DNA of 64,000 bases from positions 64,503,043-64,567,042 of the forward strand of contig OW799234.1 of the NCBI GenBank assembly GCA_941918925.1, read 5' to 3'. A program made the position numbers and the translations under genes. Positions 16,101 to 63,456 of this stretch are shown piece after piece (the first letter of the stretch is position 1; each line of letters opens with the position of its first letter). The DNA is from Phyto melanocephala. Its lineage: Eukaryota; Arthropoda; Insecta; Diptera; Rhinophoridae. Under the pieces are notes generated by a model. The model saw nothing but the letters and a program-made list of their open reading frames with translations. It did not search any database and was not told the origin of the DNA.

Positions 16101-19100
16101 TTTTTATGTATGGACTTTGACGAGAAAATATACAAAAAAAAAAAAAAATAAACTTGTTCTTGTAAGGTTATCTTATAAAGTAAAACATAAATTTTTACAG
16201 AAGAATTAATTACAAAAATTAAACAGCAGAATGACACGTCATAGAACGACAACAGAAAGTAAAGACTAATGAGGCCTTTATCGTTGGAGGATTCACAAGG
16301 TCTGGTAGCACACCAGTATTCCCTAAATTTGTAAAATGCTTTAAAAATTTTATATTAAAATTTTAAATGACAGCACACCTTCTGATACTTTAACGCCCAC
16401 TTTCATTGATAGACTAAATTTACGAAAACATTTTACTAGCATATCGAAGTTATACAAAGAAAGTGATACATATTTTAGTATAATGAGATTATTCCATAGT
16501 TATACAAAGAAAGTGATACATATTTTAGTATAATGAGATTATTCCATAGCGATTACAGTTAATAACAAAATAAAAAATTTTGTGCTATAGAAGTATATAC
16601 ATACATATGTATATATAGTGCTCTTACTTGTTTTACGACGTTGATAAATTCACCTTGCCATTTCCAACTTAAACTTGTTTCCCTTATTTTTTAATTTATA
16701 TATTTCTTTTAAACAATACTAAAAAGAAAAGAATTTGGTTGTGCAAAAGTTAAGTTGACTCTTGAGACGACCAATTTTGGGTTAAGGCGCAGTTCATTGA
16801 TATTTCCGTTTATAACAGCTATGTCCTATATCGTTCTATCTTAATTGACATAATTTTTTGCACAAATTCACAACTACTAACTTTCTCCCAATATTGGTGA
16901 CGCAAATACAAAATAAATATCATATATGTATGGAAGTTAAGCTTGAAAAGCTTAATATTGTTTAGAAATAGTAAAAAAGTTTGTATCAATCTGTAAGGCT
17001 GCTCTAGAACATGATCTAAAACGTTTGATTGCAATACACCATAATTTCAATTATTTGTTTTTTATAATAGCAAGTAAACAGGCAGATATGAATATTTCTT
17101 ATTCCAGTATAAAATTGACAAAAAAAATATCGTTAATAAATTTTTACAAAATTGTGTATAGAAAAAGATTTAACAAAAAAACATTTTAAATGATGGAAAA
17201 TGTTTTGGTTTTAAATTTATTTATGTATTTTCTGTTTTTTACGATCAAATATGAATGAACGATTTTGTCAACGAACAATAGAATCGATTGATAATTTTTT
17301 AAATAACGAAAGCATTCTACAAAAGGTAGATAAAGCTATACGAATAGAAAAGAGATAGAGCAAGATAAAAGTAGTGTGGATTTTGTTCTATGTTGTTGCT
17401 AGTTATTAAAGGAATAGATGCTTTGCTTTATTTTGAACTTTTGTACTAATACTTTAACAATATTTAAATAGCTATATATTTCTAAAAACTATGTTTCTCA
17501 TTAGCATTTAATTAATATTTATATTTTTATTTTGTTTTTTTTTTTTTTTTTTTGTTCAAATCAAACAAATTATTTAAAGAAAAAAAAAAATAAAAATATA
17601 TTAAGTTAATATGAAAATTAAAAGTAAAAAAAGGAAAATTGTAAGAAAATCTCTTGTTTCGTGTTGTTATGTTGATGACTGTATAAGGAATAAGATAATA
17701 AAATGTATACTAAAAAACAAATTTGACCATATGCCCATAAAACATACACATATGTATGTATTTATGTGTATGTACATTAGAACGTACTGGAAAAAAGTTC
17801 GTACTAAGTACACTACTGACAAAAAGACAGTTAAAACTAACGAAAGGGTTAACTGTCACACGAACTGTAATACTGTGCTAAATTTTTTTACATTTATGAT
17901 CAGTTACTGTTCACATTATTCACATTATCCACAACAGACCCGTTTGGTGTGGTTTTCACGATGATGGCATTACGCTACGGTCAATGGAGTGCGTTACCCA
18001 TGATTTTTCTGTTAGAAAACAAGGATGAGATTGATCTGGGTGAGATATGGTTTCAACAGGATGTCGCTACGTGTCATACGTCGGCTTCGAGAAGTGAACC
18101 TGTCAATTAGCCTCCAAGGTTATACAATTTGACACCTCTCGACTATTTCCTATGGGGTCTGGCGAAGTTACTGGATTTGTGCTCATAAACCAGCATCAAT
18201 TAACGCCTTTAAGGGCCAACAGTATTTGTATTATTCGTGACAAACGGCCATCAATGCTGGAAAAAGTGGCCTAAAATTGGACGTCCATAATTGGTTTCGC
18301 CAAGAATAGCCGCGGTGGCCATATGATAGAAATTATTTTGAAATTTTAATGCAACGTTTTTTTTTTTTTTTTTTTAATTCAAATATTTTAGTTACATATT
18401 TCACTTAATTTTTTTCAAAACTCCAAGTTCTATGAGGCACCCTATATTAGTATAGATTCTCCTAACCACTGGGTTGTATAATTCGTAAAACAAAAAAACA
18501 CTGCTGACCAAGTGTTGTATGTTGCATGCCACTTATTACTCGCTACAAATTTAAAATTTGTTTATTGAATAATTACACAGGCCAACACTCAATTTGCTTC
18601 TTTGAATTTATCAACTGATTCTAGTTAATTTGGGTGCGCTGAATCTGTAATCAGTTTGTCTCTATCAGCTCTAGTTTTCATGATATAGTTTAAGTTTTTA
18701 AAAAGTAAAACTTTTTCATAGGAATTTAAAAAAAAAAACAAAGAAGAAATCTGGAATGAACAGCCGGATTAGAGTCTCTTTGCAAATTCCAACAGTAGTC
18801 TGCCATCATATGTGTATCCCACCTTCCCTGGTACCGATTCTCCATAATTTTGATATCTTGGTGAAACCTTTCTCCTTGTTCTTCGCTTAAATTACCCAAA
18901 TTTTCGGGAAATCGGTCCAAGTGACTGTGCAAATAATGGATTTTAATACTCATGTTGCAGTCAAGGTCTCTGAACTTATCCAGCATATTCTCCACTAATT
19001 GAACATAATTTGGAGCTTTATTATTTCCCAAGAAATTCATTCAGTTTTAGCATTTCGTTCAGTTTCGGTCATTGACTTATCAAAATCACTAAATACTCAC

Positions 19101-22100
19101 TAAACAGAAGTAACAGTCGTCCAAATGATTTCTGGGCTCTCTCCAAACCATCGGCACATTAAACTTAAGCCTATTTCGTTTTCCTTGAGTCCACTGTCGC
19201 AAATTTACACAGCAAGTATTGCACACAATGTGTGGAGCCCAGCTTTTATCTTGGTCACCAAGATCAACTCCAAAGTAATCTAAATACGATTTTTTAACAC
19301 ATTCCGAAATAGGTCTTATGTTTTCTTTAAAGGCGTATTCTCCACAAATATAACAAAATGTGTCAGCGTTATTTTTACAACATCTTCTATTGGAAATCAT
19401 TTCTATTTAGATTAACACTTTTTTAATAAACTTTGCCAACTGACCACTTCTTACAAGCAACTAACTTCCGATATGCAATTGGAGTGCAAAAAGAAAAAAT
19501 AACGTTCTGAATAATATTACACAAATGAAATTCCCGTTAATCAGCTAGCAATTACACAAAAAATAATATTTTCGGAAAAAACGGAATGACAAACTGATAT
19601 ATACCCTCCTCACTTATAGTGAAGGGTATAAAAAAACTATATCATGAAAACTAGAGCTGATAGAGACAAACTGATTACAGATTTGAATTCAGCGCACCCA
19701 AATTAACTAGAATCAGTTCAAAGAAGCAAATTTTTTTTAATTTTGTCGGGCTGTGTTATTGGACTGAAATACACCCAAACAAAAAAGCGTAGTAAAAAAT
19801 ATGCTCACGTTTTGAACACTACAACAAAATTACGTTGTACAACAATATACATACTTTAGTAGGGGTAGTTTCATTATAGAAATATGTTTCATATTTTTGT
19901 TAAACTACAAAAAAATAAAAAAATAGCAATTTGCAAATAAATATGCAGTCAACCTTTAAAAAAGTGTTATCGAATTAAATGGTAGTATTTGTTTCAAAAT
20001 AGAAAAACAGCAATCGTGTTTACACAAAAAAATATATTTAATATCAAAAAAAAAATAATAATAATTTAACTTTAGTAGAATTTTTATCATAAATATTATG
20101 TTTTATATTGACTGTCGGCGTTATTTATAAGCAGAAACCTTGTGCTATCTAAATAAATGATGACTTTTGTTTTGTGCAAATTCACATAAGGGAAAATTGC
20201 AGTTCGTTAGTTAGCATACAGCGGCTCGTTATGAATAATGCTTTATGTCCTTTAATATACATTTAAGTATTAAAGCCTGTGACATATACATACATATGTA
20301 TAATATTTAGTGTTTTGTAGAGACGATACCAGCCATTCAGTTTTCAAAATGTACTTTTCTTAAAATTTAGGAAATTTCTTTTAATTTATAGCTAAGAATT
20401 ACAAACCACCTTAAATTTTTAAATTAAAAGGAAACATACTGAACAATTATCCCTGCAACCTTTAAATGTTTAGTTGAATTAATAAAAATTATTATTAGAC
20501 TTATACATATTTACATTGATGTTATATATTATTTTTAGTACACCATCATCAATTGTAATTTAAGAAAATAATGTTCAATCATATAAAGGAATTTAATGTA
20601 TAAAAAAAATAAACCATATTCCCAAAACCTAAAAGTGGATTTTGTTTCTAATCATTGAAAACTTTTCATAAAGAAACTTTTTGTAAATTAAAAAAATTTC
20701 TTATAATTTCAAGGTATAGGTTTTCATTTATATCTATATATGAAGTTTGGCGTTTGAAAAGAAACGATTGAAGAGAAATTTCTTTGTATTTGTAGAGGTT
20801 GTTGATAGTTAAATATCAAAATATTAATGAAGAAAAGAATCATGACTATTTGATAAATAAATTATCCAAAAATAAAGAGTTTGCCAACATTTTTATTAAT
20901 ATACATATGTATGTATAAAATTTATTTAAAATTTTTTCCATAAACAAAACAAAGAAAAAAAGTTTGTGCTGAATTTTTTATTGCGATTACGATATAACAC
21001 ATAAGAGAGCTAAACTCAAATATATATTTAACAGTTTTATGAAGGTAAAGGTCATTTTCAGAAAAAGGCCTACATGAATTAATTAGGCCCAAAATGTAAT
21101 TAAACTTGTGTTCTTCACATTGACTGCAAGGTTGGCATCCACAGACGAACGAAACTTGTTTGATACAGAAAATGATTCAAGTTAATTTGCATTCTTAAAG
21201 GTTGGAGTGGGAATATTTTTTATTATCAGAATTTCTGCAAAAATGCAAAATTTATCAATAATTTTCTAAAACTAAGAGATTCGGTAATAATGCAAATAGG
21301 AAATTTAGCAAAATTTTTGAAAAAAATAAAAAAAAAAAAACAAAATTTGTAAATAGACAGAATTGATTTGGAAAAATGCAAGCAAAGAATATACATATTT
21401 GAAAATTGTCCACTTAATTTGTTTGTATAATTTTCGTAAATTACAAATGATAATTTGATTTTGAAACGGAATTAGTTTGATTTTAAGTTACATATAAGGT
21501 AAGAAAATAAATATATTTCAACAACTTACGCTGTTCATTGGAATCATTGTAGTTTATATTATTAACATCTAGCTCACTATTACTGGCTGCAATTCCATTA
21601 GCTTTTAGATATACGTTTTATGTATAATTGATCAGTTGAAATTTTTTTTTTTTTGATTGTTGGTGTAATTCGTAGTATGTTTATCCAAAACAAAGTTATG
21701 TTTATAAATAAAATGAACCCCATGGTATTGATTAAACAGAATGAATGTATACAATAATAAATTTATACATTATATTTTTATTATTTTTTTTTATTTTTTT
21801 GTTTATAACCAAATCGGGGCAGGATTTTTTTTTAAGATAAACCAACAAATTAAAAAACATAAAAAACAGTACGACAGTACACATTAAGTAGTGTGTTTGA
21901 TTGGCGAGTGTATGTAAATTTTGTTGAGTAGAGAATAGGAGCAGTGGTGAAAAAATGTTGACATCATTATGGTAAAAAAGGCATGAGTTTACAGTAGGAC
22001 AATTGTGTAGACAATAGACAAAGGTGGTAGAGTATTTGATGAATAAATAAAAAAAAAAGTAAAATTAAAAACAAAAATTAAAATATAATTTTAATTACTT

Positions 22101-28100: not shown

Positions 28101-31100
28101 GAAATCCTGTTTTTAAACTCCTCGTGTACGTTTTAATTGCAATGAACCCACATACATATATACGTAGTTATCAAGGCATATTCATTTATCAGTTAGTATT
28201 GATTAGTCAGCAGTTACTTTTTGTATACCCTTCACACGAGTGTAAAAGTGTATATATAAGTTTGTCATTCCGTTTGTAATTTCTCCGTTTGCAATTTCTA
28301 CAGTATATGTATATATAGCAATCTCAGTTTTTATACCCTTCACACGATAGTTTGAATAAAAATATAAAATTTACAAACGAAAACCGATTTTTTTCAGTTT
28401 CTATACAACCTAGAAAGTAAAAATCCTAGTTGACGTCCTAGATGAAATGATGAATATATGTGTCAAAAATAGTAGTTACGGATTTGACTGGGCTTGACCA
28501 GTAAAAACTATTAAAAAATGTAAAATCAAAAATGTCGTCTGAGACAAACTGACAAACATTTTATTAACCCCATTTATATGGATATCAAATGAAAGGGTTT
28601 GACTAGTGGAATACACTAGTTGACAAGTAGGATAAGCTACAATTTGGTCATTATATCTATGTACATGATGGTGAAGGATATTATCAGATTCAGCATTTTT
28701 AACTTCAGCAATCCAACTCCGTAAATAAAAAAGACATTTCTCATTTCTAATTTATTTCACAATGTCAAACTTTATAAGTAAAATAATTTAACCTAATAAA
28801 TAAATATACATTCAAACATGTATTGCATGTTCGTTCTATTTCAGTTTTAATGTTGATCTTTGTTCGTGTTCAGCTTTATTTTATTCTAATGTTGTTCTAT
28901 TTCAGTTTTGCTTTATTCTTAAATTTTTTTATCGTAAATCAAAACTCATATTTTTGCAATTACCTATTTTATAATGAGAGAGTAATAGTGTGTCTACTAT
29001 TTAAAATTTAAGAGAGAGCAGCGCTTAATTAAGTATTTATGTAGAAAATAATTTAGCATTTTTGCTCTTTCTAACCAAGTATGTAAATAAGGTGCAAGAA
29101 TTCACACCGAACCGTTGGATAGTTAGACCATTCTGAAGGGTTCAATATTCCGCAGTATTATTTTTAAAAAATTAAAAAAAAATACTATTTAAAACTTTAT
29201 ATATTAAAATGAATCCCTTTTTCCCTTGGTCACGGCATCACGCGTGAATGGCTAGACCGATTTCACTAATTCTTTTTTTGTTGTATTTGTTATTATTAGG
29301 AGAAGGTTCTTATGTCAGTTTCGTGATTATAAAAGTGGGCAGTGCCACGCCCATAAAAAATGTGTTATCATTTTAAGCTACTTGCACTAGATTGATTTTT
29401 CTGAAACTTTGCACACATATTGAGCTGTCATGACTACATAACTTCGTGGTTATAAAAATAGGCAGTGCCACGCCCAAAGGAAATAAGTTTTAATTTTTAG
29501 CTACTTGCACTAGATCGATTTTTCTGAAACTTTACACACATATTGAGCTGTCATGACTACATAACTTCGTGGTTATAAAAGTGGGCAGTGCCACGCCCAT
29601 AAAAAATTAGTTATCATTTTTAGCAACTTGCACTGGACCGAATTTTCTAAAACTTTGCACACATATTGAGCTGTAATGACTATATAATTTCGTGATTAGA
29701 AAAGTGGGCGGTGCCTTGCCCATAAAAACAAGTTATAATTTTTAGCTTCTTGCACTTGATATTCAATTAAAATTCAGAATGCATTTTTATTCATTAAGGG
29801 TCGTAGCAACGCGCGCCGGGCTTGTCTAGTTTAATATACAAATGCATGTAAAGTGAAAAGTTTTAGATTTTAAGGAAAACAATTAAGAACACTGTGCCGA
29901 ATATTTTATACCCACCACCAATTTGATGTACTTTTGTAGAACAAATTTTATTATTTTGTTATTAACAGTGTATCGCCATGGAATAATCTCTATATACTAA
30001 AATATATATCACTTTCTTTGTATAACTTCGATATGCTAGTAAAATATTTTCGTAAATTCAGTCATTCAATGAAAGTGGGCGTTAAAGCAGGAGTGTCAAA
30101 AAACTTTTTTCCATAGAGAAATTATATGAATTTAAAATTAAGCGTTAAATGGGAGGTAACCCTTAAAGTGGCCGTGTCACATTCATTTTCTGACATAACA
30201 ATGACATTGACTAGAAAGCTATATGTACGAAATCATCATACCTCTAATTTTGTCGGTTTTATGAGCTTTTAAATTTCATTAACAGTATATTACGTAAAAA
30301 GTGGGTGTTATACTAGACGTGTAGAAATAGTTTCTGTCAATAAACTCCACTCAGATATTTCAATATAAAGTCCTATATTCTTCAAAAATCTTTATTCATA
30401 GAATAATTATATGAATTTGAGATAAAGCGTTGTATGGGAGGTGGGCGTGTCACATTTATTTTCCGTTAATACAAAGCCTTTGACCAAAAAGCAATGTTTG
30501 CAAAATTTCTGAATCAAACATCTAATTTTGTCAGTTTTATAACGTTTTCAATTATGAATATACCGAAAATACACTGTGCGGTATAAATTTTCGTACATTT
30601 TGAATTTTCAGGGAAAAATATATTGTTTTTACTCAGGAAATATACATACATTCGAAATTTCATGGCATGTTGGAAGGACATGGTTTTTTACATTACGAGC
30701 TATTACTCTTTTCCTAATATCCCGATTTAGCCCATTTTTAATACCAAACAAACCTATAAGAAATATTCTGGCAAAATTTAAGCTCCCTAGCTTTTTTGGT
30801 CCAGTCTCTATCGTGCTTTTAACAGACGGACGGGCATAGCTAGATCGTCATAAAATCAAACCACGATTTAGAATATATATACTTTATGGGGTCTAAAATG
30901 GATATTTCGATGTGTTACAAACGGAATATCAAAATGAATATACCCCCACCATTTTTTTTGGTGGTGGGTATACAAATTTGTCTAAACTTTTGCCACCCCA
31001 ATAAAAATTTTGTAGCCACGACAATGCACGGACATATGTCTAACGAAAATTAGAAAAAAAAATGTTTTTATCAGTGTTGCCAAGTTAACAATTCTGGAAA

Positions 31101-34100: not shown

Positions 34101-37100
34101 CTTCCTCTACCACACGGCATCAAAGTCTCAATTTACTTAAAAAGTGGATTTAGCAGGTTTGCATATTAAGCCGACGATAATCATTTTAAACTAAAGAAAT
34201 TAGAAATAATTTCTGAGATTACGGCTTATAATTTGGTATTTTAAGCGTGGCCAAAAATTATTTAGGAGTTTGAAAAATTTTGATATATTTAGAAAAATAT
34301 ACATTTTTTCAAATAATTTTTGCGTATAACTTTGCCGATTAGCGACCAATTTGTCCAAAATTTTTCATTAATATCTCTTGAGTCATATTTAATATATAAA
34401 TAAAGTGTGCTTTTTTAGCTATTATCTTTTTGGCAACACTGGTTTAAACAGCTGACGCACGTTTCGTGTTTTGTTTCACTGTCAAACATCTTCAGTTTGG
34501 TCTATAATTTAACCATGAATCGTCTTACAAACAACGCTTGCAAATTATTGAATTTTATTATCAAAGTGCGTGCTCTGGTAAGAAAGTTCATCGTGCGCTT
34601 CTTATCGAAAAATTGTGTTCAGCGACGAAGCTCAATGGGTACGTTAATAAGCAGAATTGTCGATTTTGGAGTGAAGATCAGCCAGAAGCATTGCAAGAGC
34701 TACCAATGCATCCAGAAAAAGTCACAGTTTGGTGCGGTTTATGGGCTGATGGCTTCATTGGACCGTACTTCTTCAAAGATGATGCGAATCGTAACGTAAC
34801 TGTGAATGGTGAGCGCTACCGTGAGATGATATCCAACTTTTTTTGCCCAAAATGCAAGAGCCTCACTTGCATGATATGTGTTTTCAACAAGACGGTGCCA
34901 CATGCCACACGGCACGCTTAACAATAGACTTATTGAGAGAAGAGTTCGGTGAACATTTTATTTCGCGTTAAGGTTCGGTCAATTGGCCGCCTAGATCGTG
35001 CGATTTAACGCCTTTAGACTATTTTTTGTGGGGCTATGTTAAAGCTCATGTCTATACACACATGCCCGCTTCAATTGACACATTGGAAGACAACATTGAA
35101 TCATTTATTCATGAGATACCGGCCGAAATGTTGGAAAGAGTATGCCAAAGTTGGACTAAGCGGATGGACCATTTGAGGCGCAGTCACGGTCAACATTTGC
35201 ATGAAATAATCTTTAAACATTAAATTATATGGACCGAACTATCGATTCAAATAAAGGTTTCATGCATTTTTCTGAATTTAATGTGTTTTTTTTAAACTTT
35301 CCTCTTGCTCTTAAAAATCACGCTTTAGTAACATCCGTAAAATTACCCCAGGACTGGAAAATTTTAATTTTTGTGGTAACGAAAGTTTTGGGGCGATTAT
35401 GCTGATTTCCAGTACTGATCTGCTCTCAAATATTTCTGATATTATGATACCTTACACGAGTCTTGGGAATGTCGGGGGCTTCAAAATGTTCAAAATACAC
35501 ACGGACAGATGGACAGACTGATATTGCTTAATCGATTCCCCCAATCATTAGCTTTCAGTTAAATATATACTTTATTAGGTCGGAAATGAAAATTATAGAA
35601 ATTTTACACGAAATGACAAAACCTTTTACACTGTCGTGTAAAGGGTATAAAAAGGAACTTCAACTACGACCATTTCTTAGAAGGCCATAACTTTGAAAAT
35701 GAATATCAGAAAAAAAATATATGGTATATGCTTTTTCTTACTGACTAAAAGTACAGTTAAGCTATATTAAGAAGAAAAATATTTTTTTTATTGTCGGTTC
35801 CACACGAAATGATTCATATGTTAAAAAAAATATTTATAAAAAATAATTGAACTTACCTTGTTATATCCTCAGTGCTAACAGCTCTTGGAGTGCCTGGTGG
35901 CACGGCAGCCAAAACATTTGATGAGGCATACCTAGACGCTGGTTGTTCTATAATTTGATATTTTGTGTTTTTTTTTTTTTTTTTTTTTTGCACCAAATCA
36001 AAATAAAGCGTATTGTAATATAGAAAAAAAAAGCCCAAACAACAAAATATTGGTTGGGACAGGAAATACAAAAAATAAAAAATTGTTTGTTATTAGTGTG
36101 ATTAAAGCATTGGTTGTTTGGTATTATTAAGTTGTAGTAGTTTTTAAGAGATTATTTTTGATTTGTTTTAAGCCAGTTGTTGTGGTAGGACAATATAACA
36201 TAATTCTTTTTTTTTTAATACAGATTTTCTTTTTGCAATTTCTTTGCTTGTTTTTAAAACATAGAGAAAGGAATAAACAAAACAAAAAAAAACAAAATAA
36301 GAAACCGATATAAATTAAGAAAAATAAAAACACACCACTCTTGTATGCAGCAGCAGCACCAGTAGACATGCAAACACACAAATCATCACAGTTAAAACTT
36401 GAAAAATTTAGATTCAAATGAATAAATAAATTTTTATTACAAGAACTAAATCATTGTCCATAAAAAACTTAAAACGTGCAAAACAGTCACAAACAAGTTT
36501 GGATTTTTAATAATATAAAAATAAGATTTTTCTTGACACTTTCTATAAAGTCCTTTTTAAACATGCAAATTATGTTTTTTGTTTGTTAGAAAAATTAAAA
36601 GTTATTAAACAATACAACTAACAGAAAAAAGCTAAAAATTTCCGATTCTATTTGCTTAATATGTATATGAAAAAAACATTAAGTTAACAAGCATACAAGT
36701 GTAACATTATTGTTTTAATATATGGAATGATTTCTAAAAGGTTTTTTAAATGAATTCTGTTTGGGTATGGGTTTGGGTTCAGTTTTTCTTTTCTTGCTTG
36801 GACAGAGGTGATTAAAGTTTTACTTTTACTTTTTCTATATTTTTTTTTTTTGTTTTGTTTTGTTTTCAAATACAACTTAACGAAAATTCGAAAATAAAGT
36901 ATTAGGAAATAGTTTAAAAGTAAAACGTAAAGGAAAAATTATAAAAAAAAAATCAAAAGAAGCTTACGAGGCAGAGGTGACTGGGATCTAGATGTAGATG
37001 TAGGAATTATTTCAGCTACAGCTGGGGAAGATGCATGGTGCTGGTTATTGCTATTATTAGTTATTGTAGCTGTTGCTGGTGGTTGCATAGCATTTGTATT

Positions 37101-46100: not shown

Positions 46101-49100
46101 TTGAGGGATTAAATTTTGCCAGAATATTTCTTTTACACAAGGTTTGTTTGGTATTGAAATTTCTGAAAGCTTATGAATAGAGGAGTCGATTAAGCCCTGT
46201 CCGTGTGTTGGTTAAAATCAACTTTAAGAAGCAACCATATGTTCCTCAGATCTGTGTATGGTATCAATCTTTTAGATATACACGGGAATGCATCGCTATT
46301 GAAATTCAGCACAATCGCCCCATATCTTTCTGAAATATGAGCAAATAAATATGACTGCCTCTGGTTTTTCCCATATTTTACCACCAAAATTAAAATTTTT
46401 CAGCCTTAGAATACTACTACTACTATTTGTAGATATAATATGCCTTTAGAGATATTCGTGAAAATTTTTGGATAAAGCGGGCTCTAATCGGTAAAGTTAT
46501 AGGCATTTTTTTTTTTAATATATATTCCAAAAATTTACAAACGAAAATCAATTTTTTTCAGCTTCTAGACAACCGAGAGAGTCAATATTGGTATTATTAG
46601 AAGATGTAAAATCCAAGATGGCGTCTAAAACAAAATGGCGGATCAAATTTGTTTAACCCCATCAATATGGGTATCAAATTAAAGGGCTGAACAAGTAGAA
46701 TATATATAACTTTGCTTTTAAGAGATTTTCAAACGAAATAAATTTTGTATAATTTTATAATTTGTTAGCTATAAGTACAATAGAAATAAATTGTTTATGA
46801 TGTTTAGAAATAATTTTTTTTATGGTCCAAATTTTCCTAAATTCCTATTTTTAATAGAGCATAACTTTTAGAGAACATAAGAAAAAAAAAAGAAATTAGC
46901 ACTATTTAGTAGATAAAACTCTCCTCTATACCCCTATAACCCATTGTGTACCCGGAACGATCCGACCGTGAGCATCAGACCAATTTTTGTGACACAAGGT
47001 CAAATATTTTTTGCAAAGTTTGAGTAAAAGAGCTAAACAAATTTTTTTTGTAATGTTCTTTTTTTAAGTATTTTAGTTTTTTTATCAAATTGCTTTTATG
47101 AGAGACGGTTTTTAGATGGATATATATATGTATATATTTACAACTGCACACAATAACAAATAGATCTCAACTAATTATGGTAAACACCATTGATATGTAA
47201 CAAGCGTTCTTACAGGTAGAAGTAAAAAATCAATCAAATTCTAAATGGGGATGTGATGGGTCCTCTGTTCAGAGACAATACAAGCAATGTAATGCCGAAA
47301 ATTCGTCAGATGCCAATTTATTTATGGTATCTTTCGTTCCATTGCGCTTAACAAAAAGTTATAGCGGCTTGGAGCCCTAAACTAGTAGAGCAACAAAAAT
47401 TGTTTTGTGGAAAAATGAAATACCTTCGTCAATAAAATTTACATTCCAAAAAGAAACAAAAGATGTCATAACTGAAAAAGTCAAAAAAAAATAAAAGATC
47501 AAATTAAAGCCCTTCAACCTGCAATATTTTCAATTGATGACCAGGAAGTCGAAGTAAATTTTAAAATGTGTCTCACAATGATTGATGGAAAAGTTGCATA
47601 AGCTTTAACTGATACAAAAGCATCGTCAAGCTGCATTATATGTCAAAAGACATCAAGCCAACTAAGCCATTCCATTTCAGAAGATGACAGTTTTAAGGCA
47701 GCATATGGTTTTGGATTGTCCCCTCTTCATGCTAGAATACGTTTAATGGAGCATATTCTTAAATTAGGTTATGATTTGGATGTTGGTCCATAAGGACAAA
47801 CAGTGAGAAAAAATAAGGAAAATAAAAAATAAGTAAGCAAAAAAAAAACAAATTCAAGAAAAATATTTAGAACTAGGCCTAGTGATCGATAAGCCTAAAC
47901 AAGAAGGAAACACAAATGATGGCAATACTGCAAGGAGATTTTTTTCAGATCTAGAAACTGCAGCATCTATTACAGGTGTAGATTTGGAACTAATAAAGCA
48001 CTTCAACATTATATTACAAGTTCTAGCATGCAGTAGAAAGATAAATGCGAAAAAATTTGGAGAGTATGCCAAAAAAACAGCTATACTTTATAACGAGAAA
48101 TACTCTTGGAGATATGTATATGCCATCCACAGTTCATAAAATTTTGTACCATGGGGAACAAATAATTAAACACAATATGCTACCAATAGGGGATCTATCT
48201 GAAGAAGCTCAAGAAAAAAGAAACAAGGACTACAGATTCTTTCGCGAGCACAACACTAGAAAAATTACCAGATGTTGTACTAACGAAGATCTGATTACTA
48301 TTTTATTATGCACCTCAGATCCCTATATGCCCAATATCCGGCAAACATGGAAAACTAACTATATTGAATTAGACGTCAAAGCTAAACTACTTCTAGAAGA
48401 TGAAAACCAAGGCTATATATATTTAGAAAAAATATCTACTTAAATTGTTTAATTAATAGTATTTTTTCAGAACTTTAGATGTTTTATGTACATTAATCAA
48501 TTTTAAATTTACAACTTTGTAATAAAAGTTTACATATATTATTTATAATGTCTATTTTGGACTTAATAAACCAATTTTAAACACAAACTACTTCAAAAAA
48601 CCAACCTTTGGCCCGTCGTACTAAAAATTTCTCAAAAAATAGGACTTTGTACAAGACGAACGTTTTTAACAAGCTTTAATAATTCACTTTTTTTTACCAT
48701 AAATCAGCTAAAACTTAAAATGCATTTTAAACCAATCATAACTATTTTTCTAACCAGTCGATTTTTATATCTCAAACCTAAAGCTAATAGTCTCACCTAG
48801 TAAACAAAAAAATACTGCGTTTAAAAATTCCAATCCAGTCAAAAGTTATAGATTTTAGACCGCCTTCTCGCGAAATGGGCCACCGTGCAGCGTACACCTT
48901 ATTAAATTCATTATTCACATTAAATACACATTAATACACACTTTCTCCAGTTTTTTATATCCTTCACACGAAAGTGTAAACGGGTATATGCATGATGCAA
49001 TTACAAAAGGTGATTGCAGTACGGAGAGAATTTTTTGAAAACATTTTTTTCTTATATAAAGTTTGACAATTGGAAATTATGAAAAAAATAGTGAAAATAT

Positions 49101-52100: not shown

Positions 52101-55100
52101 GAAATTTAAATTATTACAAATACATACGGCCTTATTCATAACAAAAAGTTGGCATAAAGTTTATTCATAACATACATGCCAAACTCTGGCTAACGATTTG
52201 CTAAACTCTTGTTAACGAGCTGCCAAGCGTTTGCCGACTTATGAAAATAAAAAATAAAAATTTTTGTGCACGAAAAATATATTGTTTGTTTATTTTTTCA
52301 ATTTATTTTTAAATTTTAAAAATTGTTAGTATGAATGGAAAAACAAAAAAAAATGTCAAAATAAGGGATGATATACAAAAAATGGTTGCAATTTCAGAGT
52401 TGATTTATGAAAAGTTGGCAGACGGATAAAAGTTTGTTATGAATAAACTCTGTGACAACGAGCTGCCAAGCTAAATCGGCATTCTAGTTAGCAGCTCCTT
52501 GTACGTAGTGTATAAACTTTGGCTAACTTTTTGTTATGAATAAGGCCGATAAATTTCAGATTTATATAAACTTTAAATTAAAAAAAAATAGGGAATTTTC
52601 GATAAACTTACAACATGTACATATATATATATATGTCAATGAAGTTACTAAAACAGGAAACTTTTTTTTTTTGCCACGCCCCAAAATACAGCACTTTTTG
52701 TTTTTTATATATAGCGCCGCCATTTAAAGTCCGATCTCATCATGTCACATTTTGTTGTTCATGGCTTGACTATAACTTTAGTTTTGCCCTGGGTGACTTT
52801 TTAATCTAACGTCAAATTAAAGATGTCATTTATGACATCTCGGTTCCTTCCCACTAATCTAAAATTTTGTTATGAAATAATATATAAAGCATTCAACTCA
52901 TTTAAGGTAACATGACAAATTAATCAGAGTTCGAGTACAGACATAATACGCTCTAATAGCATTTCTTCAATTTACAACTGCCATTGTATTTTGTCAATCA
53001 AATAAAAAATCAATATTAAGAAAGTTGATCAAATCTTACTTTTACAGAGTTACAAAATGTTAGTAAAAATTTGTACTAAAGTTAAAACCAATCAACAAAA
53101 CATTTCAGTTAAAAAATATATAATTTTTATTTTAAGAGCAAAAAAAAAATACTACAGAATTTTTTTTTGATGCTGCAAAAACTTTTATTTTCCATCCCTG
53201 TATGAATCCATTACAACGCTTTTAAAAGAAACAAAAAGTTTTAATGAAAATTACCAACAACAAGCAAATAACACTGTAAACACAAACAAAAATAGAACCA
53301 ATAATAAGTACATTACAACAGGGGTTGTGAATTGAATTATTAATTCATGAAGAGTATTCCCCATGTTTATAATAAATTTTGAGGCTTACCGGAGGTTAAT
53401 TAAACTAATTTTTCACACAAAAATCCTAAATAAATTTAAAAACTACATAGTTATGAATATCAGCGAATATTTGATATATTTTTCTTTCGATGTTTATCAT
53501 AACCAGACACCGGAAATTCATACAAATTTATATCTCCCCCTTTACGTTTAAGAACAGGGTAAATAAAATATATTTCCGGATTTAAGAATTTGCATTAAAA
53601 TGGCATTAATTTGTTAGTACATTTTTTGGATATTTGGCGAGCATGTTTTTATTTATTCTGCTAAAAATGCATTATATTCCTGCAACCTCATGCTATCAGA
53701 AAAGAAAAAAAATCGGTTTTAATATGTGATACAAATCCAGAAAATTAATCCGCAATTTTTTTCCTACCCCATCTTGGATTTTTTATTTTTAAATAGTTAG
53801 CTATAATTTTGGTAGTCAAGCCTTTTCATAACCATAATAAGAGGGTTGAAGGGGAAACATTTATTATTACTAACGAGTGTCTCAGTAAAAATTCACTTTT
53901 GCATTTTAAAATAAAAACACGTATTTTTTGAGATATTTGTGATTTATATAAAGAAGACATGTTCCAATTAAGTATGGAATAAAATATTCGTCAAATGGTC
54001 GCCATGGATCTGATGATGCCGTTTCTCTTCTTATGAAATTTTCCATGACTTTTTTACAGAGATGTGGCTGTATCTCAATGATGACGCATTAACTCTCGGA
54101 TTGAAGCTCAGGAAATGTTTCGGGTTTATTGATATACACCCGAGATTTATATAAATGGCATGATCTGGGTGGCCAGTTGACATCAAAATTAAGATAATTT
54201 GTTCTGGAAATTTTTGCTGCTACAAATGGATCGTTTTATGCGCGGGGTGTGTTGTCCAGATCCATGCCATTCAGCTGAGGTCACAAGAACTCTATTATCA
54301 TGTTCCTGTAACGAATGAAGTTCAGCCACTTAAATTTTTGCCTCATTTAAAAAAAAAAATGAAGGCCCAATCACGCTGCCTGACCAAAATCCGCACCAAA
54401 CTTTTGCTTGTTTTTTGGAAAAATTAGCATTGACTTCACTATGCTCCATTAACTATTGAATGATTTGCGGGGCTCTCTATGATCTGCTGGTTTCAGTTCC
54501 TCTGTAAGCTTAAATTTGTACACATAAAGAAAGTGCTTCGAGATATTTGAAGTTGTTAAAAACGATGTGTAATTATGTGTGTGAAGTTAGCTCCGTAAGT
54601 TAGCTTCGTTTTTTAAGTTTACCTAAGTTACATGGTAACTTAACATAACTCTCACTCTTTGTCTGCTACTTTAACAGAACAGTATATTTTTAGCTTAAAA
54701 ACATTGTGTGCATACAAATCAAAAATGTATGCGTAACATAATGTTAATATTAAGTAAAATCTATATGAACATACATATGTATATTGCAATTTCGCACACC
54801 TTAAAAAAATTTAAAAAAATTTAAAAATTTTATAAAACAAATAAGATCGAAAAAATCATTTAATAATTTTGAAACTATGTAATCTTTATTCAGAATTTAT
54901 TTCAGATCGGAGATATATGACTTTGAAAAAAAATTTTAACATTTTTGCTATATGGACAATTTGAAATATGCAAAAAAAGGCTAAATCTAGAAATTGTGCT
55001 CCAATCAGACCTTTAGTGCTCGAAAGCTATCATTCTAGAGATTCCAGAACCATATAGTCTATATTCAGAATTTATTTCAGATCGGAGATATATGACTTTG

Positions 55101-58100
55101 AAAAATAAAAATTTTAACATTTTTGCTATATGGACAATTTGAAATTTGCAAAAAAAGGCTAAATCTAGAAATTGTGCTCCAATCAGACCTTTAGTGCTCG
55201 AAAGCTATCATTCTAGAGATTTCCGAACCATATAGTCTATATTCAGAATTTATTTCAGATCGGAGATATATGACTTTGAAAAATAAAAATGGTAACATTT
55301 TTGCGATATGGACAATTTGAAATTTGCAAAAAAAAGGCTAAATCTAGAAATTGTGCTCCAATCAGACCTTTAGTGCTCGAAAGATATCATTCTAGAGATT
55401 TCAGAACCATATAGTCTATATTCAGAATTTATTTCAGATCGGAGATATATGACTTTGAAAAATAAAAATTTTTAACATTTTTGCTATATGGACAATTTGA
55501 AATTTGCAAAAAAAGGCTAAATCTAGAAATTGTGATCCAATCAGACCTTTAGTGCTCGAAAGCTATCATTCTAGAGATTTCAGAACCATATAGTCTATAT
55601 TCAGAATTTATTTCAGATCGGAGATATATGACTTTGAAAAATAAAAATGTTAACATTTTTGCTATATGGACAATTTGAAATATGCAAAAAAAGGCTAAAT
55701 CTAGAAATTGTGCTCCAATCAGACCTTTAGTGCTCGAAAGCTATCATTCTAGAGATTTCAGAACCATATAGTCTATATTTAGAATTTATTTCAGATCGGA
55801 GATATATGACTTTGAAAAATAAAAATGTTAACATTTTTGCTATATGGACAATTTGAAATTTGCAAAAAAAGGCTAAATCTAGAAATTGTGCTCCAATCAG
55901 ACCTTTAGTGCTCGAAAGATATCATTCTAGAGATTTCAGAACCATATAGTCTATATTCAGAATTTATTTCAGATCGGAGATATATGACTTTGAAAAATAA
56001 AAATGTTTACATTTTTGCTATATGGACAATTTGAAATATGCAAAAAAAGGCTAAATCTAGAAATTGTGCTCCAATCAGACCTTTAGTGCTCGAAAGCTAT
56101 CATTCTAGAGATTTCAGAACCATATAGTCTATATTCAGAATTTATTTCAGATCGGAGATATATGACTTTGAAAAATAAAAATGTTAACATTTTTGCTATA
56201 TGGACAATTTGAAATTTGCAAAAAAAGGCTAAATCTAGAAATTGTGCTCCAATCAGACCTTTAGTGCTCGAAAGATATCATTCTAGAGATTTCAGAACCA
56301 TATAGTCTATATTCAGAATTTATTTCAGATAGGAGATATATGACTTTGAAAAATAAAAATTTTTAAAATTTTTGCTATATGGACAATTTAAAATTTGCAA
56401 AAAAAGGCTAAATCTAGAAATTGTGCTCCAATCAGACCTTTAGTGCTCGAAAGCTATCATTCTAGAGATTTCAGAACCATATAGTCTATATTCAGAATTT
56501 ATTTCAGATCGGAGATATATGACTTTGAAAAATAAAAATGTTAAAATTTTTGCTATATGGACAATTTGAAATTTGCAAAAAAAGGCTAAATCTAGAAATT
56601 GTGCTCCAATCAGACCTTTAGTGCTCGAATGCTATCATTCTAGAGATTTCAGAACCATATAGCCTATATTCAGAATTTATTTCAGATCGGAGATATATGA
56701 CTTTGAAAAATAAAAATTTTTAACATTTTTGCTATATGGACAATTTGAAATTTGCAAAAAAAAGGCTAAATCTAGAAATTGTGCTCCAATCAGACCTTTA
56801 GTGCTCGAAAGATATCATTCTTGAGATTTCAGAACCATATAGTCTATATTCAGAATTTATTTCAGATCGGAGATATATGACTTTGAAAAATAAAAATTTT
56901 TAACATTTTTGCTATATGGACAATTTGAAATTTGCAAAAAAAGGCTAAATCTAGAAATTGTGCTCCAATCAGACCTTTAGTGCTCGAAAGCTATCATTCT
57001 AGAGATTTCAGAACCATATAGTCTATATTCAGAATTTATTTCAGATCGGAGATATATGACTTTGAAAAATAAAAATGTTAACATTTTTGCTATATGGACA
57101 ATTTGAAATATGCAAAAAAAGGCTAAATCTAGAAATTGTGCTCCAATCAGACCTTTAGTGCTCGTATGATATCATTCTAGAGATTTCAGAACCATATAGT
57201 CTATATTCAGAAATTATTTCAGATCGGAGATATATGACTTTGAAAAATAAAAATTTTTAACATTTTTGCTATATGAACAATTTGAAATTTGCAAAAAAAG
57301 GCTAAATCTAGAAATTGTGCTCCAATCAGACCTTTAGTGCTCGAAAGCTATCATTCTAGAGATTTCAGAGCCATATAGTCTATATTCAGAATTTATTTCA
57401 GATCGGAGATATATGACTTTGAAAAATAAAATTTTTTAACATTTTTGCTATATGGACAATTTAAAATTTGCAAAAAAAGGCTAAATCTAGAAATTGTGCT
57501 CCAATCAGACCTTTAGTGCTCGAAAGCTATCATTCTAGAGATTTCAGAACCATATAGTCTATATTCAGAATTTATTTCAGATCGGAGATATATGACTTTG
57601 AAAAATAAAAATGTTAAAATTTTTGCTATATGGACAATTTGAAATTTGCAAAAAAAGGCTAAATCTAGAAATTGTGCTCCAATCAGACCTTTAGTGCTCG
57701 AAAGCTATCATTCTAGAGATTTCAGAACCATATAGTCTATATTCAGAATTTATTTCAGATCGGAGATATATGACTTTGAAAAATAAAAATTTTTAACATT
57801 TTTGCTATATGGACAATTTAAAATTTGCAAAAAAAGGCTAAATCTAGAAATTGTGCTCCAATCAGACCTTTAGTGCTCGTATGATATCATTCTAGAGATT
57901 TCAGAACCATATAGTCTATATTCAGAATTTATTTCAGATCGGAGATATATGACTTTGAAAAATAAAAATTTTTAACATTTTTGCTATATGAACAATTTGA
58001 AATTTGCAAAAAAAGGCTAAATCTAGAAATTGTGCTCCAATCAGACCTTTAGTGCTCGAAAGCTATCATTCTAGAGATTTCAGAACCATATAGTCTATAT

Positions 58101-61100
58101 TCAGAATTTATTTCAGATCGGAGATATATGACTTTGAAAAATAAAAATGTTAAAATTTTTGCTATATGGACAATTAGAAATTTGCAAAAAAAGGCTAAAT
58201 CTAGAAATTGTGCTCCAATCAGACCTTTAGTGCTCGAAAGCTATCATTCTAGAGATTTCAGAGCCATATAGTCTATATTCAGAATTTTTTTTTAGATCGG
58301 AGATATATGACTTTGAAAAATAAAAATGTTAACATTTTTGCTATATGGACAATTTGAAATTTGCAAAAAAAGGCTAAATCTAGAAATTGTGCTCCAATCA
58401 GACCTTTAGTGCTCGAAAGATATCATTCTAGAGATTTCAGAACCATATAGTCTATATTCAGAATTTATTTTAGATCGGAGATATATGACTTTGAAAAATA
58501 AAAATTTTTAACATTTTTGCTATATGGACAATTTAAAATTTGCAAAAAAAGGCTAAATCTAGAAATTGTGCTCCAATCAGACCTTTAGTGCTCGAAAGCT
58601 ATCATTCTAGAGATTTCAGAGCCATATAGTCTATATTCAGAATTTATTTCAGATCGGAGATATATGACTTTGAAAAATAAAAATGTTAACATTTTTGCTA
58701 TATGAACAATTTGAAATTTGCAAAAAAATGCTAAATCTAGAAATTGTGCTCCAATCAGACCTTTAGTGCTCGAATGCTATCATTCTAGAGATTTCAGAAC
58801 CATATAGTCTATATTCAGAATTTATTTCAGATCGGAGATATATGACTTTGAAAAATAAAAATGTTAAAATTTTTGCTATATGGACAATTTGAAATTTGCA
58901 AAAAAAGGCTAAATCTAGAAATTGTGCTCCAATCAGACCTTTAGTGCTCGAATGCTATCATTCTAGAGATTTCAGAACCATATAGTCTATATTCAGAATT
59001 TATTTCAGATCGGAGATATATGACTTTGAAAAATAAAAATGTTAAAATTTTTGCTATATGGACAATTTGAAATTTGCAAAAAAAGGCTAAATCTAGAAAT
59101 TGTGCTCCAATCAGACCTTTAGTGCTCGAAAGCTATCATTCTAGAGATTTCAGAACCATATAGTCTATATTCAGAATTTATTTCAGATCGGAGATATACA
59201 TATGAATTTGAAAAATAAAAATGTTAACATTTTTGCTATATGGACAATCTGAAATTTGCAAAAAAAGGCTAAATCTAGAAATTGTGCTCCAATCAGACCT
59301 TTAGTGCTCGAAAGCTATCATTCTAGAGATTTCAGAACCATATAGTCTATATTCAGAATTTATTTCAGATCGGAGATATATGACTTTGAAAAATAAAAAT
59401 TTTTAACATTTTTGCTATATGGACAATTTGAAATTTGCAAAAAAAGGCTAAATCTAGAAATTGTGCTCCAATCAGACCTTTAGTGCTCGAAAGCTATCAT
59501 TCTAGAGATTTCAGAACCATATAGTTATATTCAGAATTTATTTCAGATCGGAGATATATGACTTTGAAAAATAATAATGTTAACATTTTTGCTATATGGA
59601 CAATTTGAAATTTGCAAAAAAAGGCTAAATCTAGAAATTGTGCTCCAATCAGACCTTTAGTGCTCGAAAACTATCATTCTAGAGATTTCAGAACCATATA
59701 GTCTATATTCAGAATTTATTTCAGATCGGAGATATATGACTTTGAAAAATAAAAATTTTTAACATTTTCAAATTGTCCATATAGAAAAAATGTTAAAAAT
59801 TTTTATTTTTCAAAGTCATATATCTCCGATCTGAAATAAATTCTGAATATAGACTATATGGTTCTGAAATCTCTAGAATGATAGCTTTCGAGCACTAAAG
59901 GTCTGATTGGAGCACAATTTCTAGATTTAGCCTTTTTTTGCAAATTTCAAATTGTCCATATAGCAAAAATGTTAAAAATTTTTATTTTTCAAAGTCATAT
60001 ATCTCCGATCTGAAATAAATTCTGAATATAGACCATATGGTTCTGAAATCTCTAGAATGATATCTTTCGAGCACTAAAGGTCTGATTGGAGCACAATTTC
60101 TAGATTTAGCCTTTTTTTGCAAATTTTAAATTGTCCATATAGCAAAAATGTTAAAAATTTTTATTTTTGAAAGTCATATATCTCCGATCTGAAATAAATT
60201 CTGAATATAGACCATATGGTTCTGAAATCTCTAGAATGATAGCATTCGAGCACTAAAGGTCTGATTGGAGCACAATTTCTAGATTTAGCCTTTTTTTTGC
60301 AAATTTCAAATTGTCCATATAGCAAAAATGTTAACATTTTTATTTTTCAAAGTCATATATCTCCGATCTGAAATAAATTCTGAATATAGACTATATGGTT
60401 CTGAAATCTCTAGAATGATAGCTTTCGAGCACTCAAGGTCTGATTGGAGCACAATTTCTAGATTTAGCCTTTTTTTGCAAATTTCAAATTGTCTATATAG
60501 CAAAAATGGTAACATTTTTTTTCAAAGTCATATATCTCCGATCTGAAATAAATTCTGAATATAGACTATATGGTTCTGGAATCTCTAGAATAATAGCTTT
60601 CGAGCACTAAAGGTCTGATTGGAGCACAATTTCTAGATTTAGCCTTTTTTTGCATATTTCAAATTGTCCATATAGCAAAAATGTTAAAAATTTTTATTTT
60701 TCAAAGTCATATATCTCCGATCTGAAATAAATTCTAAATATAGACTATATGGTTCTGAAATCTCTAGAATGATAGCTTTCGAGCACTAAAGGTCTGATTG
60801 GAGCACAATTTCTAGATTTACCCTTTTTTTGCAAATTTCAAATTGTCCATATAGCAAAAATGTTAACATTTTTATTTTTCAAAGTCATATATCTCCGATC
60901 TGAAATAAATTCTGAATATAGACTATATGGTTCTGAAATCTCTAGAATGATAGCTTTCGAGCACTAAAGGTCTGATTGGAGCACAATTTCTAGATTTAGC
61001 CTTTTTTTGCAAATTTCAAATTGTCCATATAGCAAAAATGTTAACATTTTTATTTTTCAAAGTCATATATCTCCGATCTGAAATAAATTCTGAATATAGA

Positions 61101-63456: not shown

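What the first reader, a model, noticed from the sequence alone, without database searches (positions are those of the whole stretch)
54575..61583. Foldback-like element with 316-bp unique ends, ~178-bp repeat arms (27 forward, 8 inverted) and a 9-bp target duplication
The termini are exact inverses, TGTGTAATT is duplicated precisely at both borders, and the interior is only a tandem repeat running inwards from both ends to a 16-base loop. A 9-bp duplication and repetitive arms are known for Drosophila Foldback elements and related Mutator-like elements, but the unit here is much longer than classical FB units and satellite-sized. That makes it a candidate undescribed Foldback family, and possibly a route from a transposon to a satellite array.
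Basis: partly seen in the sequence, partly recalled or inferred. Interest (0 to 1): 0.9.

Follow-up and report, generated by a model that had tools for sequence, protein, structure and literature searches.

The report
Mobile foldback element with satellite-length arms
A fly chromosome carries one copy of a young family of jumping DNA made of matching ends and long repeated arms; copies differ in repeat number, so the growth of satellite-like DNA inside a mobile element can be traced.

Summary
The element at 54575-61583 has 316-bp inverted ends (313 of 316 identical), about 27 forward and 8 inverted ~178-bp units, and an exact 9-bp duplication TGTGTAATT. It is not unique: a 30-bp terminal pattern hits the 739.75-Mb host genome 53 times, 50 exactly, control 0. 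These ends form 21 inverted pairs 2.0-18.0 kb long, 18 with perfect 9-bp duplications. It is therefore a young, mobile, non-autonomous foldback-type transposon family. The 14 elements examined (13 fetched, plus the window's) consist of ends and unit arrays only, apart from a nested copia in one and a split end in another; six have a 200-N gap at the centre. Two insertions share an identical centre but carry 65/12 and 36/24 units: array change inside a moving element. Two other copies share one outer duplication, suggesting a composite. Foldbacks with satellite-sized units, and a foldback-to-satellite route, are already published (Tetris; Rehavkus-1_TC). No transposase was linked, so Mutator membership is unproven. 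No unit array at a locus without family ends was seen among the places listed. New member of a known kind.

The parts
54566..54574 (+). left 9-bp target-site duplication TGTGTAATT
   Evidence: identical to 61584-61592, neighbours differ
54575..54846 (+). left terminal inverted repeat, unique part (about 272 bp); its terminal 30 bp occur exactly at 50 places in the genome
54847..54889 (+). degenerate partial unit where the end passes into the array (positions 273-315 of the end)
   Evidence: positions 273-356 of the end align to the unit at 84%, the outer part being the degenerate one
54883..59768 (+). left arm: 27.4 tandem units of about 178 bp
59769..59786 (.). centre of the inverted structure: 18-nt loop between 98-bp perfect stems
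   Evidence: the copy at C1:84.52 has the same loop with one base different
59787..61275 (-). right arm: about 8 tandem units in inverted orientation; units R01 and R05 are identical and both carry the 3-bp deletion of the outermost unit
61268..61583 (-). right terminal inverted repeat, 313 of 316 identical to the left
61584..61592 (+). right 9-bp target-site duplication TGTGTAATT

Best explanation
This is one copy of a young, non-autonomous, cut-and-paste DNA transposon family of foldback architecture. SHOWN: a terminal 30 bp that is almost invariant over the family, 9-bp target duplications, arms made of ~178-bp tandem units in inverted orientation, and no coding interior of their own in the 14 copies examined. 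INFERRED: a transposase made elsewhere in the genome binds the two ends, cuts the element out and inserts it at staggered 9-bp cuts. SHOWN for two insertions (C4:125.02 and C2:132.85): an identical centre, the same outermost and innermost units, but arms of 65/12 and 36/24 units with repeated blocks between. INFERRED: between or during moves the arrays grow and shrink by unequal exchange, slippage or break repair, as satellites do, while the ends stay fixed. INFERRED: the palindromic centre promotes template switching and so new junctions (six kinds among eight gapless copies). INFERRED: two neighbouring copies can move together as a composite with the DNA between them.
For: Terminal 30-mer: 53 places (26 forward, 27 reverse), 50 exact; control 0 and 0. 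21 inverted pairs, 2,001-17,985 bp, median 7,919 (pairing by orientation and distance). Perfect 9-bp duplications in 18 of 21 pairs: 11, 2, 1, 4. The 14 elements (the window's and 13 fetched ones) all have end + forward units + inverted units + end. Ends differ by a mean of 0.9 in 225 bp among 27 ends, so the family is young (one split end left out). 591 units from these 14 elements, 271 distinct, mean difference 4.25 within and 4.67 between elements. E06 and E09: the 62-nt centre is an exact reverse complement in the other, the exact match runs on 139 and 660 bases to either side, and no other of the 14 has it. Units outward from the centre differ by 0,0,0,1,0,0,0,0,0,1,1,2 on one arm; outermost units are shared on both arms; block 226-227-228 occurs 5 times in E09's 36-unit arm and 0 times in E06's 12-unit arm; E10 holds a 12-unit block twice. 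Composite: copies at C1:84.50 and C1:84.52 have mismatched flanks of their own but share the outer AGCTTGGGG.
Against: 3 of 21 pairs lack their own matching duplication (C2:28.56, C1:84.50, C1:84.52) and 11 of 53 ends are unpaired. No transposase was found in or beside a copy. Six of the 14 elements have a 200-N gap at the centre, so their arms are joined by scaffolding only. No reads were available. The centre shared by the window's copy and C1:84.52 is not matched by especially similar neighbouring units, so it may be an old or a convergent junction. The second arm of the E06/E09 pair is less alike outward from the centre (1,0,1,0,1,0,2,7,3,3,1,2). The first bases ATG do not fit the G/C bases reported for the first three positions of most arthropod MULE ends.
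Confidence: 0.93

Rival explanations
1. The mobilising transposase is Mutator-like (MULE: the Foldback/NOF, Phantom or Rehavkus branch), so the family is a non-autonomous MULE. This is compatible with the best explanation and only names its transposase.
For: 9-bp duplications in 18 of 21 pairs lie in the 8-11 bp range given for MULEs; Rehavkus is listed with 9 bp, ends of 26-400 bp and a minisatellite before its 3' end. Rehavkus-1_TC has 164-bp satellite units in inverted termini. The host has 135 listed MULE matches, three of them in open frames of 410-471 aa, one read as a 415-aa frame.
Against: The nearest listed MULE match is about 92 kb from a family end; 504 of 654 candidates were not scored. 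Ends and units have only short chance-like matches in 12 MULE loci. Terminal ATG rather than G/C.
Confidence: 0.6
2. A different or unknown transposase superfamily that makes 9-bp duplications moves it; foldback form has arisen in more than one superfamily.
For: The Tm1 paper says foldback-like elements are not necessarily related and Galileo is placed in the P superfamily (passages). A divergent end at C2:35.10 (79%) lies 0.8-0.9 kb from a hAT-type fragment.
Against: hAT and P elements make 8- and 7-8-bp duplications (recalled; 7 bp for Galileo), here 9. The C2:35.10 interior looks like nested unrelated elements, and no partner end was found for it.
Confidence: 0.3
3. Not a transposon: a satellite array that was inverted in place, with the 9-bp match a coincidence.
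For: An inverted tandem array without recognised ends does occur elsewhere in this genome (the 172-bp array in L051).
Against: 50 exact terminal 30-mers, 21 pairs and 18 perfect duplications with different target sequences.
Confidence: 0.01
4. The palindromic arrangement is an assembly artefact (hairpin reads or misjoined haplotypes).
For: 200-N gaps sit at six of 14 centres. One locus seems duplicated: C4:125.06 repeats the right side of C4:125.02 with 1499 of 1500 flank bases and 1500 of 1500 array-side bases identical.
Against: Eight of the 14 elements are gapless, L052 too. The arms of the window's copy differ from each other outward from the centre and in unit number. Two loci on different contigs share one private centre.
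Confidence: 0.04

Closest known systems
Tetris (Drosophila virilis and D. americana foldback; PMC4079207, parts 1-4 of 6 of the text read)
   Same: Long inverted ends with a flanking domain and internal tandem units of satellite size (~220 bp), 8-10 bp duplications, no coding copy found, unit-number variation between allelic copies (three against four units), a 37-bp stretch (~80%) shared by flanking domain and unit, and long unit arrays flanked by two flanking domains seen by fibre-FISH.
   Different: Three structurally complete copies were described, with ends up to 1,735 bp and a middle domain; here 21 inverted pairs, arms up to 65 units in gapless copies, and no middle domain in the eight gapless copies. 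Tetris units also fill contigs without ends; that was not seen here. No sequence comparison was made.
Rehavkus-1_TC and the Rehavkus group (PMC10218199, PMC6446971; passages only)
   Same: 9-bp duplications, ends of 26-400 bp, 164-bp satellite units in short inverted terminal arrays.
   Different: [quoted passage not shown] here no coding part was found and the arrays are mostly larger.
Foldback (FB/NOF) of Drosophila melanogaster (recalled)
   Same: Inverted arms of tandem repeats; 9-bp duplications (recalled; also in the finding).
   Different: FB units are much shorter (about 31 bp, recalled). No FB sequence was compared.
Galileo subfamily F (PMC3573991; passages only)
   Same: Long inverted ends with ~210-bp tandem units, different numbers in the two ends of a copy.
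   Different: P superfamily with 7-bp duplications, up to three units per end.
Tm1 of root-knot nematodes (PMC3169594; passages only)
   Same: Composite foldback-like ends, mostly 9-bp duplications, a Phantom-type transposase in one group.
   Different: ~14-bp units; asymmetric 7-bp terminal motifs outside the inverted repeat.

Membership tests
Foldback architecture (generic) | long inverted ends built largely of tandem repeats, able to fold back | tested here: met
Foldback architecture (generic) | dispersed copies with target-site duplications | tested here: met
   18 of 21 pairs, 9 bp
Drosophila FB/NOF | sequence relationship to FB or to the NOF protein | not testable with these tools
   no eukaryotic repeat library on hand; no FB sequence compared
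Mutator-like (MULE) | 8-11 bp target duplication | tested here: met
   9 bp in 18 of 21 pairs; range
Mutator-like (MULE) | MULE transposase in a copy with these ends | tested here: inconclusive
   none seen in the 14 elements; none of the 135 listed matches within about 92 kb of an end; but 504 of 654 candidates were not scored and six of the 21 pairs were not fetched in full
Mutator-like (MULE) | G/C bases at the first three positions of the ends (most, not all) | tested here: not met
   ends start ATG; feature from a passage
Rehavkus | 9-bp duplication, ends of 26-400 bp | tested here: met
   definition
Rehavkus | transposase with PHD finger | not tested
   no coding copy found to test
Tetris | sequence identity to its flanking domain or TIR-220 | not testable with these tools
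   no Tetris element sequence on hand; unit length differs (178 against ~220)
Galileo / P superfamily | 7-bp target duplication (Galileo) | tested here: not met
   exactly 9 bp at the window's copy
Satellite DNA | arrays free of transposon ends | tested here: inconclusive
   every place printed lies at a locus with a family end, but 32 of 52 candidates were not scored; 587 of 747 exact unit words are placed at such loci, 160 unplaced

The most novel reading that the evidence does not exclude
A currently mobile satellite: a foldback family whose copies are nothing but ends and satellite-scale arrays, which re-amplifies its arrays between successive jumps (65/12 against 36/24 units around one identical centre) and can carry host DNA as a composite (8 kb between two copies within one shared duplication). 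The spreading element would itself be the source of new dispersed satellite arrays, without having to lose its ends.
Probability: 0.4. Interest if true: 0.65.

Novelty: new member of a known kind. Interest (0 to 1): 0.5.

Why it matters
How satellite arrays arise and spread is a long-standing question, and foldback elements are one published route (Tetris). Here one chromosome-scale assembly holds a whole young family with intact ends, target duplications, arms of 2 to 65 units and a pair of sister insertions that share a private centre. Array change inside a mobile element can thus be traced unit by unit, and rates, block sizes and the role of the hairpin centre become measurable.

Tried and rejected
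Free satellite arrays: looked for with the unit as DNA and as an exact 29-mer; none seen among the listed places.

Transposase: PF10551 in the own genome, blast of ends and units against 12 MULE loci, interiors of the fetched copies, and three divergent ends at C2:35.10, C1:172.9 and C4:75.8. The C2:35.10 interior held pieces of other elements (a hAT dimerisation domain at 1e-07, and a RAG1-type match at 0.0032 below its cut-off), so the idea that it is the autonomous relative was dropped.

A conserved 200-bp middle domain: rejected; these were runs of exactly 200 N.

Truncated right end of the copy at C3:85.24: rejected; the end is split by an insertion of about 2.5 kb and the duplication CTCAATAAG is intact.

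Relation of the 172-bp unit in L051 to the 178-bp unit: score 95 against a shuffle mean of 57 and a maximum of 96 in 500; suggestive, not claimed.

Order along the arms of the window's copy: weak signals only (arms colinear at shift 0, P = 0.024; lag 3 in the left arm, P = 0.010, the lowest of ten lags tested); not built upon.

Viral and prokaryote collections: end and unit patterns gave 0 in viral contigs, the unit pattern 0 in genome contigs, as expected for a fly sequence.

Host species: a dlg1 exon gives its best named match in Rhagoletis zephyria at 80% and an unnamed contig at 89%. The species stays unresolved; a mitochondrial marker search did not complete.

Full report
OBSERVATION. The element spans 54575-61583 (7,009 bp). 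TGTGTAATT stands on both sides, exactly 9 bp. The two 316-bp ends differ at 3 positions. Tandem Repeats Finder reports 27.4 forward and 8.5 inverted units of about 178 bp at 96%. The centre is a 98-bp perfect stem with an 18-nt loop. Positions 273-315 of the end are a degenerate piece of the unit, so the truly unique end is about 272 bp. Elsewhere in the window the end has only short or A/T-rich matches.

HOST AND PLACE. The window holds exons with PDZ and SH3 domains that look like dlg1 and is 28.7% G+C. The host is a fly; the best named relative of a dlg1 exon is Rhagoletis zephyria at 80%, with an unnamed contig at 89%. The window is C2:64503043-64567042 of an assembly of 739.75 Mb in 9 contigs.

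A FAMILY. The 316-bp end finds 40 scored matches (82 candidates), each at 90% identity or more. The terminal 30-mer with up to 3 mismatches finds 53 places, 50 of them exact; the reversed control finds 0. By orientation and distance these make 21 inverted pairs (42 ends) and 11 unpaired ends. Pair lengths run from 2,001 to 17,985 bp, median 7,919; the longest includes a 4.5-kb nested element.

TARGET DUPLICATIONS. 18 of 21 pairs have perfect 9-bp duplications: 11 of 14, plus C3:64.69 and C1:0.20, C5:45.67, and C1:89.50, C2:36.31, C3:85.24 and C4:65.46. C3:85.24 counted as a miss because its right end is split by an insertion; one search shows the true border. The three misses are C2:28.56 (TAAAAATAT against AGAAAACAT), C1:84.50 and C1:84.52. 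Eleven target sequences show no clear consensus.

ANATOMY OF THE COPIES. I examined 14 elements: the window's and 13 fetched, one of them (C3:85.24) without its outermost right part. A 15th was fetched later (L052). The 14 are end, forward units, inverted units, end. Unit counts by blast run from 5/2 (C1:16.00) to 65/12 (C4:125.02). Six have a gap of exactly 200 N at the centre; one of these also carries a nested copia-like element. Eight are gapless, L052 too. The ends come in variants that differ by 10 or 20 bp in a 10-bp A/T-rich repeat, and a copy may have different variants at its two ends. In the first 225 bp, 27 ends differ by a mean of 0.9 (one split end left out).

ARRAY DYNAMICS. 591 units from the 14 elements include 271 distinct sequences. 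Mean differences are 4.25 within and 4.67 between elements, and the nearest relative lies in the same element for 30% of units against 9% expected. In the window's copy the two arms share one pool of variants (P = 0.26 for arm structure). E06 (C4:125.02) and E09 (C2:132.85) have the same 62-nt centre in opposite orientation, the exact match running on 139 and 660 bases to either side; no other of the 14 has it. On the arm with 65 and 24 units, twelve units outward from the centre differ by 0,0,0,1,0,0,0,0,0,1,1,2, and the outermost three units are again the same. On the other arm (12 and 36 units) the outermost four are the same, the twelve from the centre differ by 1,0,1,0,1,0,2,7,3,3,1,2, and E09 holds the block 226-227-228 five times where E06 has none. 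E10 holds a 12-unit block twice. The simplest reading is one source element, two insertions, and internal block duplication or loss since. The eight gapless copies show six kinds of centre. The window's copy shares its loop with C1:84.52 apart from one base, but neighbouring units are not especially alike, so common descent is less sure there.

COMPOSITE. The copy at C1:84501157-84511371 has AGCTTGGGG on its left and TAGGCAAGG on its right. The copy at C1:84519369-84534022 has ACAAAACAG on its left and AGCTTGGGG on its right. The 7,997 bp between (L051) begin inside a gypsy-like gag/pol and hold a 172-bp inverted tandem array. A 32.9-kb unit flanked by one duplication is what joint transposition of two copies would leave. 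Recombination of a circle carrying a copy into a resident copy would leave the same picture. The first copy has a central gap, so this rests on scaffold order as well.

SATELLITE QUESTION. The exact unit 29-mer occurs 747 times (402 and 345 by strand; control 0). 495 lie in 15 elements (14 and L052). Of the 100 places printed, 56 lie in the C1:0.20 pair, 21 at C1:3.6 and 15 at C1:42.9 (the last two loci with one end each); the other 8 are in a fetched element. So at least 587 of 747 are at loci with a family end; 160 were not placed. In one search each printed unit match is at such a locus, 20 of 52 candidates having been scored. End-free arrays were thus not found, though not excluded.

TRANSPOSASE. 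PF10551 (MULE) gives 135 listed matches in the host (150 of 654 candidates scored); the nearest to a family end is about 92 kb away. One locus has a 415-aa open frame containing the domain. Ends and units have only short chance-like matches in 12 such loci. Divergent ends exist at C2:35.10 (79%), C1:172.9 (86% over 108 bp) and C4:75.8 (26 bp plus a 75% unit piece), which suggests an older family history.

MECHANISM. Shown: ends, duplications, dispersal, youth, arrays that differ around an identical centre. Inferred: a transposase in trans, probably Mutator-like (0.6), acts on the ends; arrays change by unequal exchange or replication slippage; the palindromic centre yields new junctions; ends are homogenised by conversion.

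KNOWN RELATIVES. Tetris (text parts 1-4 of 6 read) already shows a foldback with ~220-bp units, 8-10 bp duplications and satellite-like arrays built from its units, some flanked by two ends. Rehavkus-1_TC (passages) has 164-bp units in inverted termini. Rehavkus as a group has 9-bp duplications, 26-400 bp ends and a minisatellite (passages). Galileo F (passages) has ~210-bp units but 7-bp duplications. Tm1 (passages) has 9-bp duplications and ~14-bp units. Seven literature searches (listings only, save the papers named) showed no report I could recognise as this fly family, but the library is partial and no sequence search of repeat libraries was possible.

VERDICT. Confirmed observation; a new member of a known kind, with an unusually clear record of array change inside a mobile element.

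Noticed in passing
C1:84501157-84534022 (L037, L038, L051, L035, L036): Two family copies share one outer 9-bp duplication around an 8-kb middle: a possible composite transposon.
   Followed up: partly
L051:4599-7290: A second inverted tandem array with a 172-bp unit, forward then inverted, without recognisable ends.
   Followed up: partly
L051:2-3993: Gypsy-like gag/pol frames: 281 aa cut by the neighbouring family copy, then a 1065-aa pol frame.
   Followed up: no
C2:38.31 copy, positions 10083-14593 of the fetched stretch (L045/L046): A nested copia-like element with one long open frame inside the unit array.
   Followed up: partly
C4:125034527 and C4:125061398: Right side of one copy present twice 27 kb apart, flank 1499 of 1500 identical: probably an uncollapsed haplotype or a very recent duplication.
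   Followed up: partly
C3:85241133-85243601: The right end of one copy is split by an insertion of about 2.5 kb.
   Followed up: partly
window 47837-48443 (+) and 18726-19406 (-): Fragments of other transposase-like proteins; the first has a weak RAG1-type match (0.016, below cut-off), the second a zf-AD match below cut-off.
   Followed up: partly
window 34419-34921 (+): Frames resembling a degraded mariner-type transposase (DUF4817 helix-turn-helix at its cut-off; the mariner label is recalled).
   Followed up: no
window 29320-29760: 123-bp tandem repeat, 3.6 copies at 86%.
   Followed up: no
window 16448-16549: Exact 50-bp direct duplication (2.0 copies, 100%).
   Followed up: no
L053 904-2151 (C3:45.85): 415-aa open frame with a MULE domain; its front looks FLYWCH-like by eye (recalled motif): a candidate Phantom-type element in this host.
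   Followed up: partly
window 54575-54650: Motif AAGTTA/TAACTT four times in the first 70 bp of the end (positions 10, 23, 51, 62): possible transposase binding sites.
   Followed up: no
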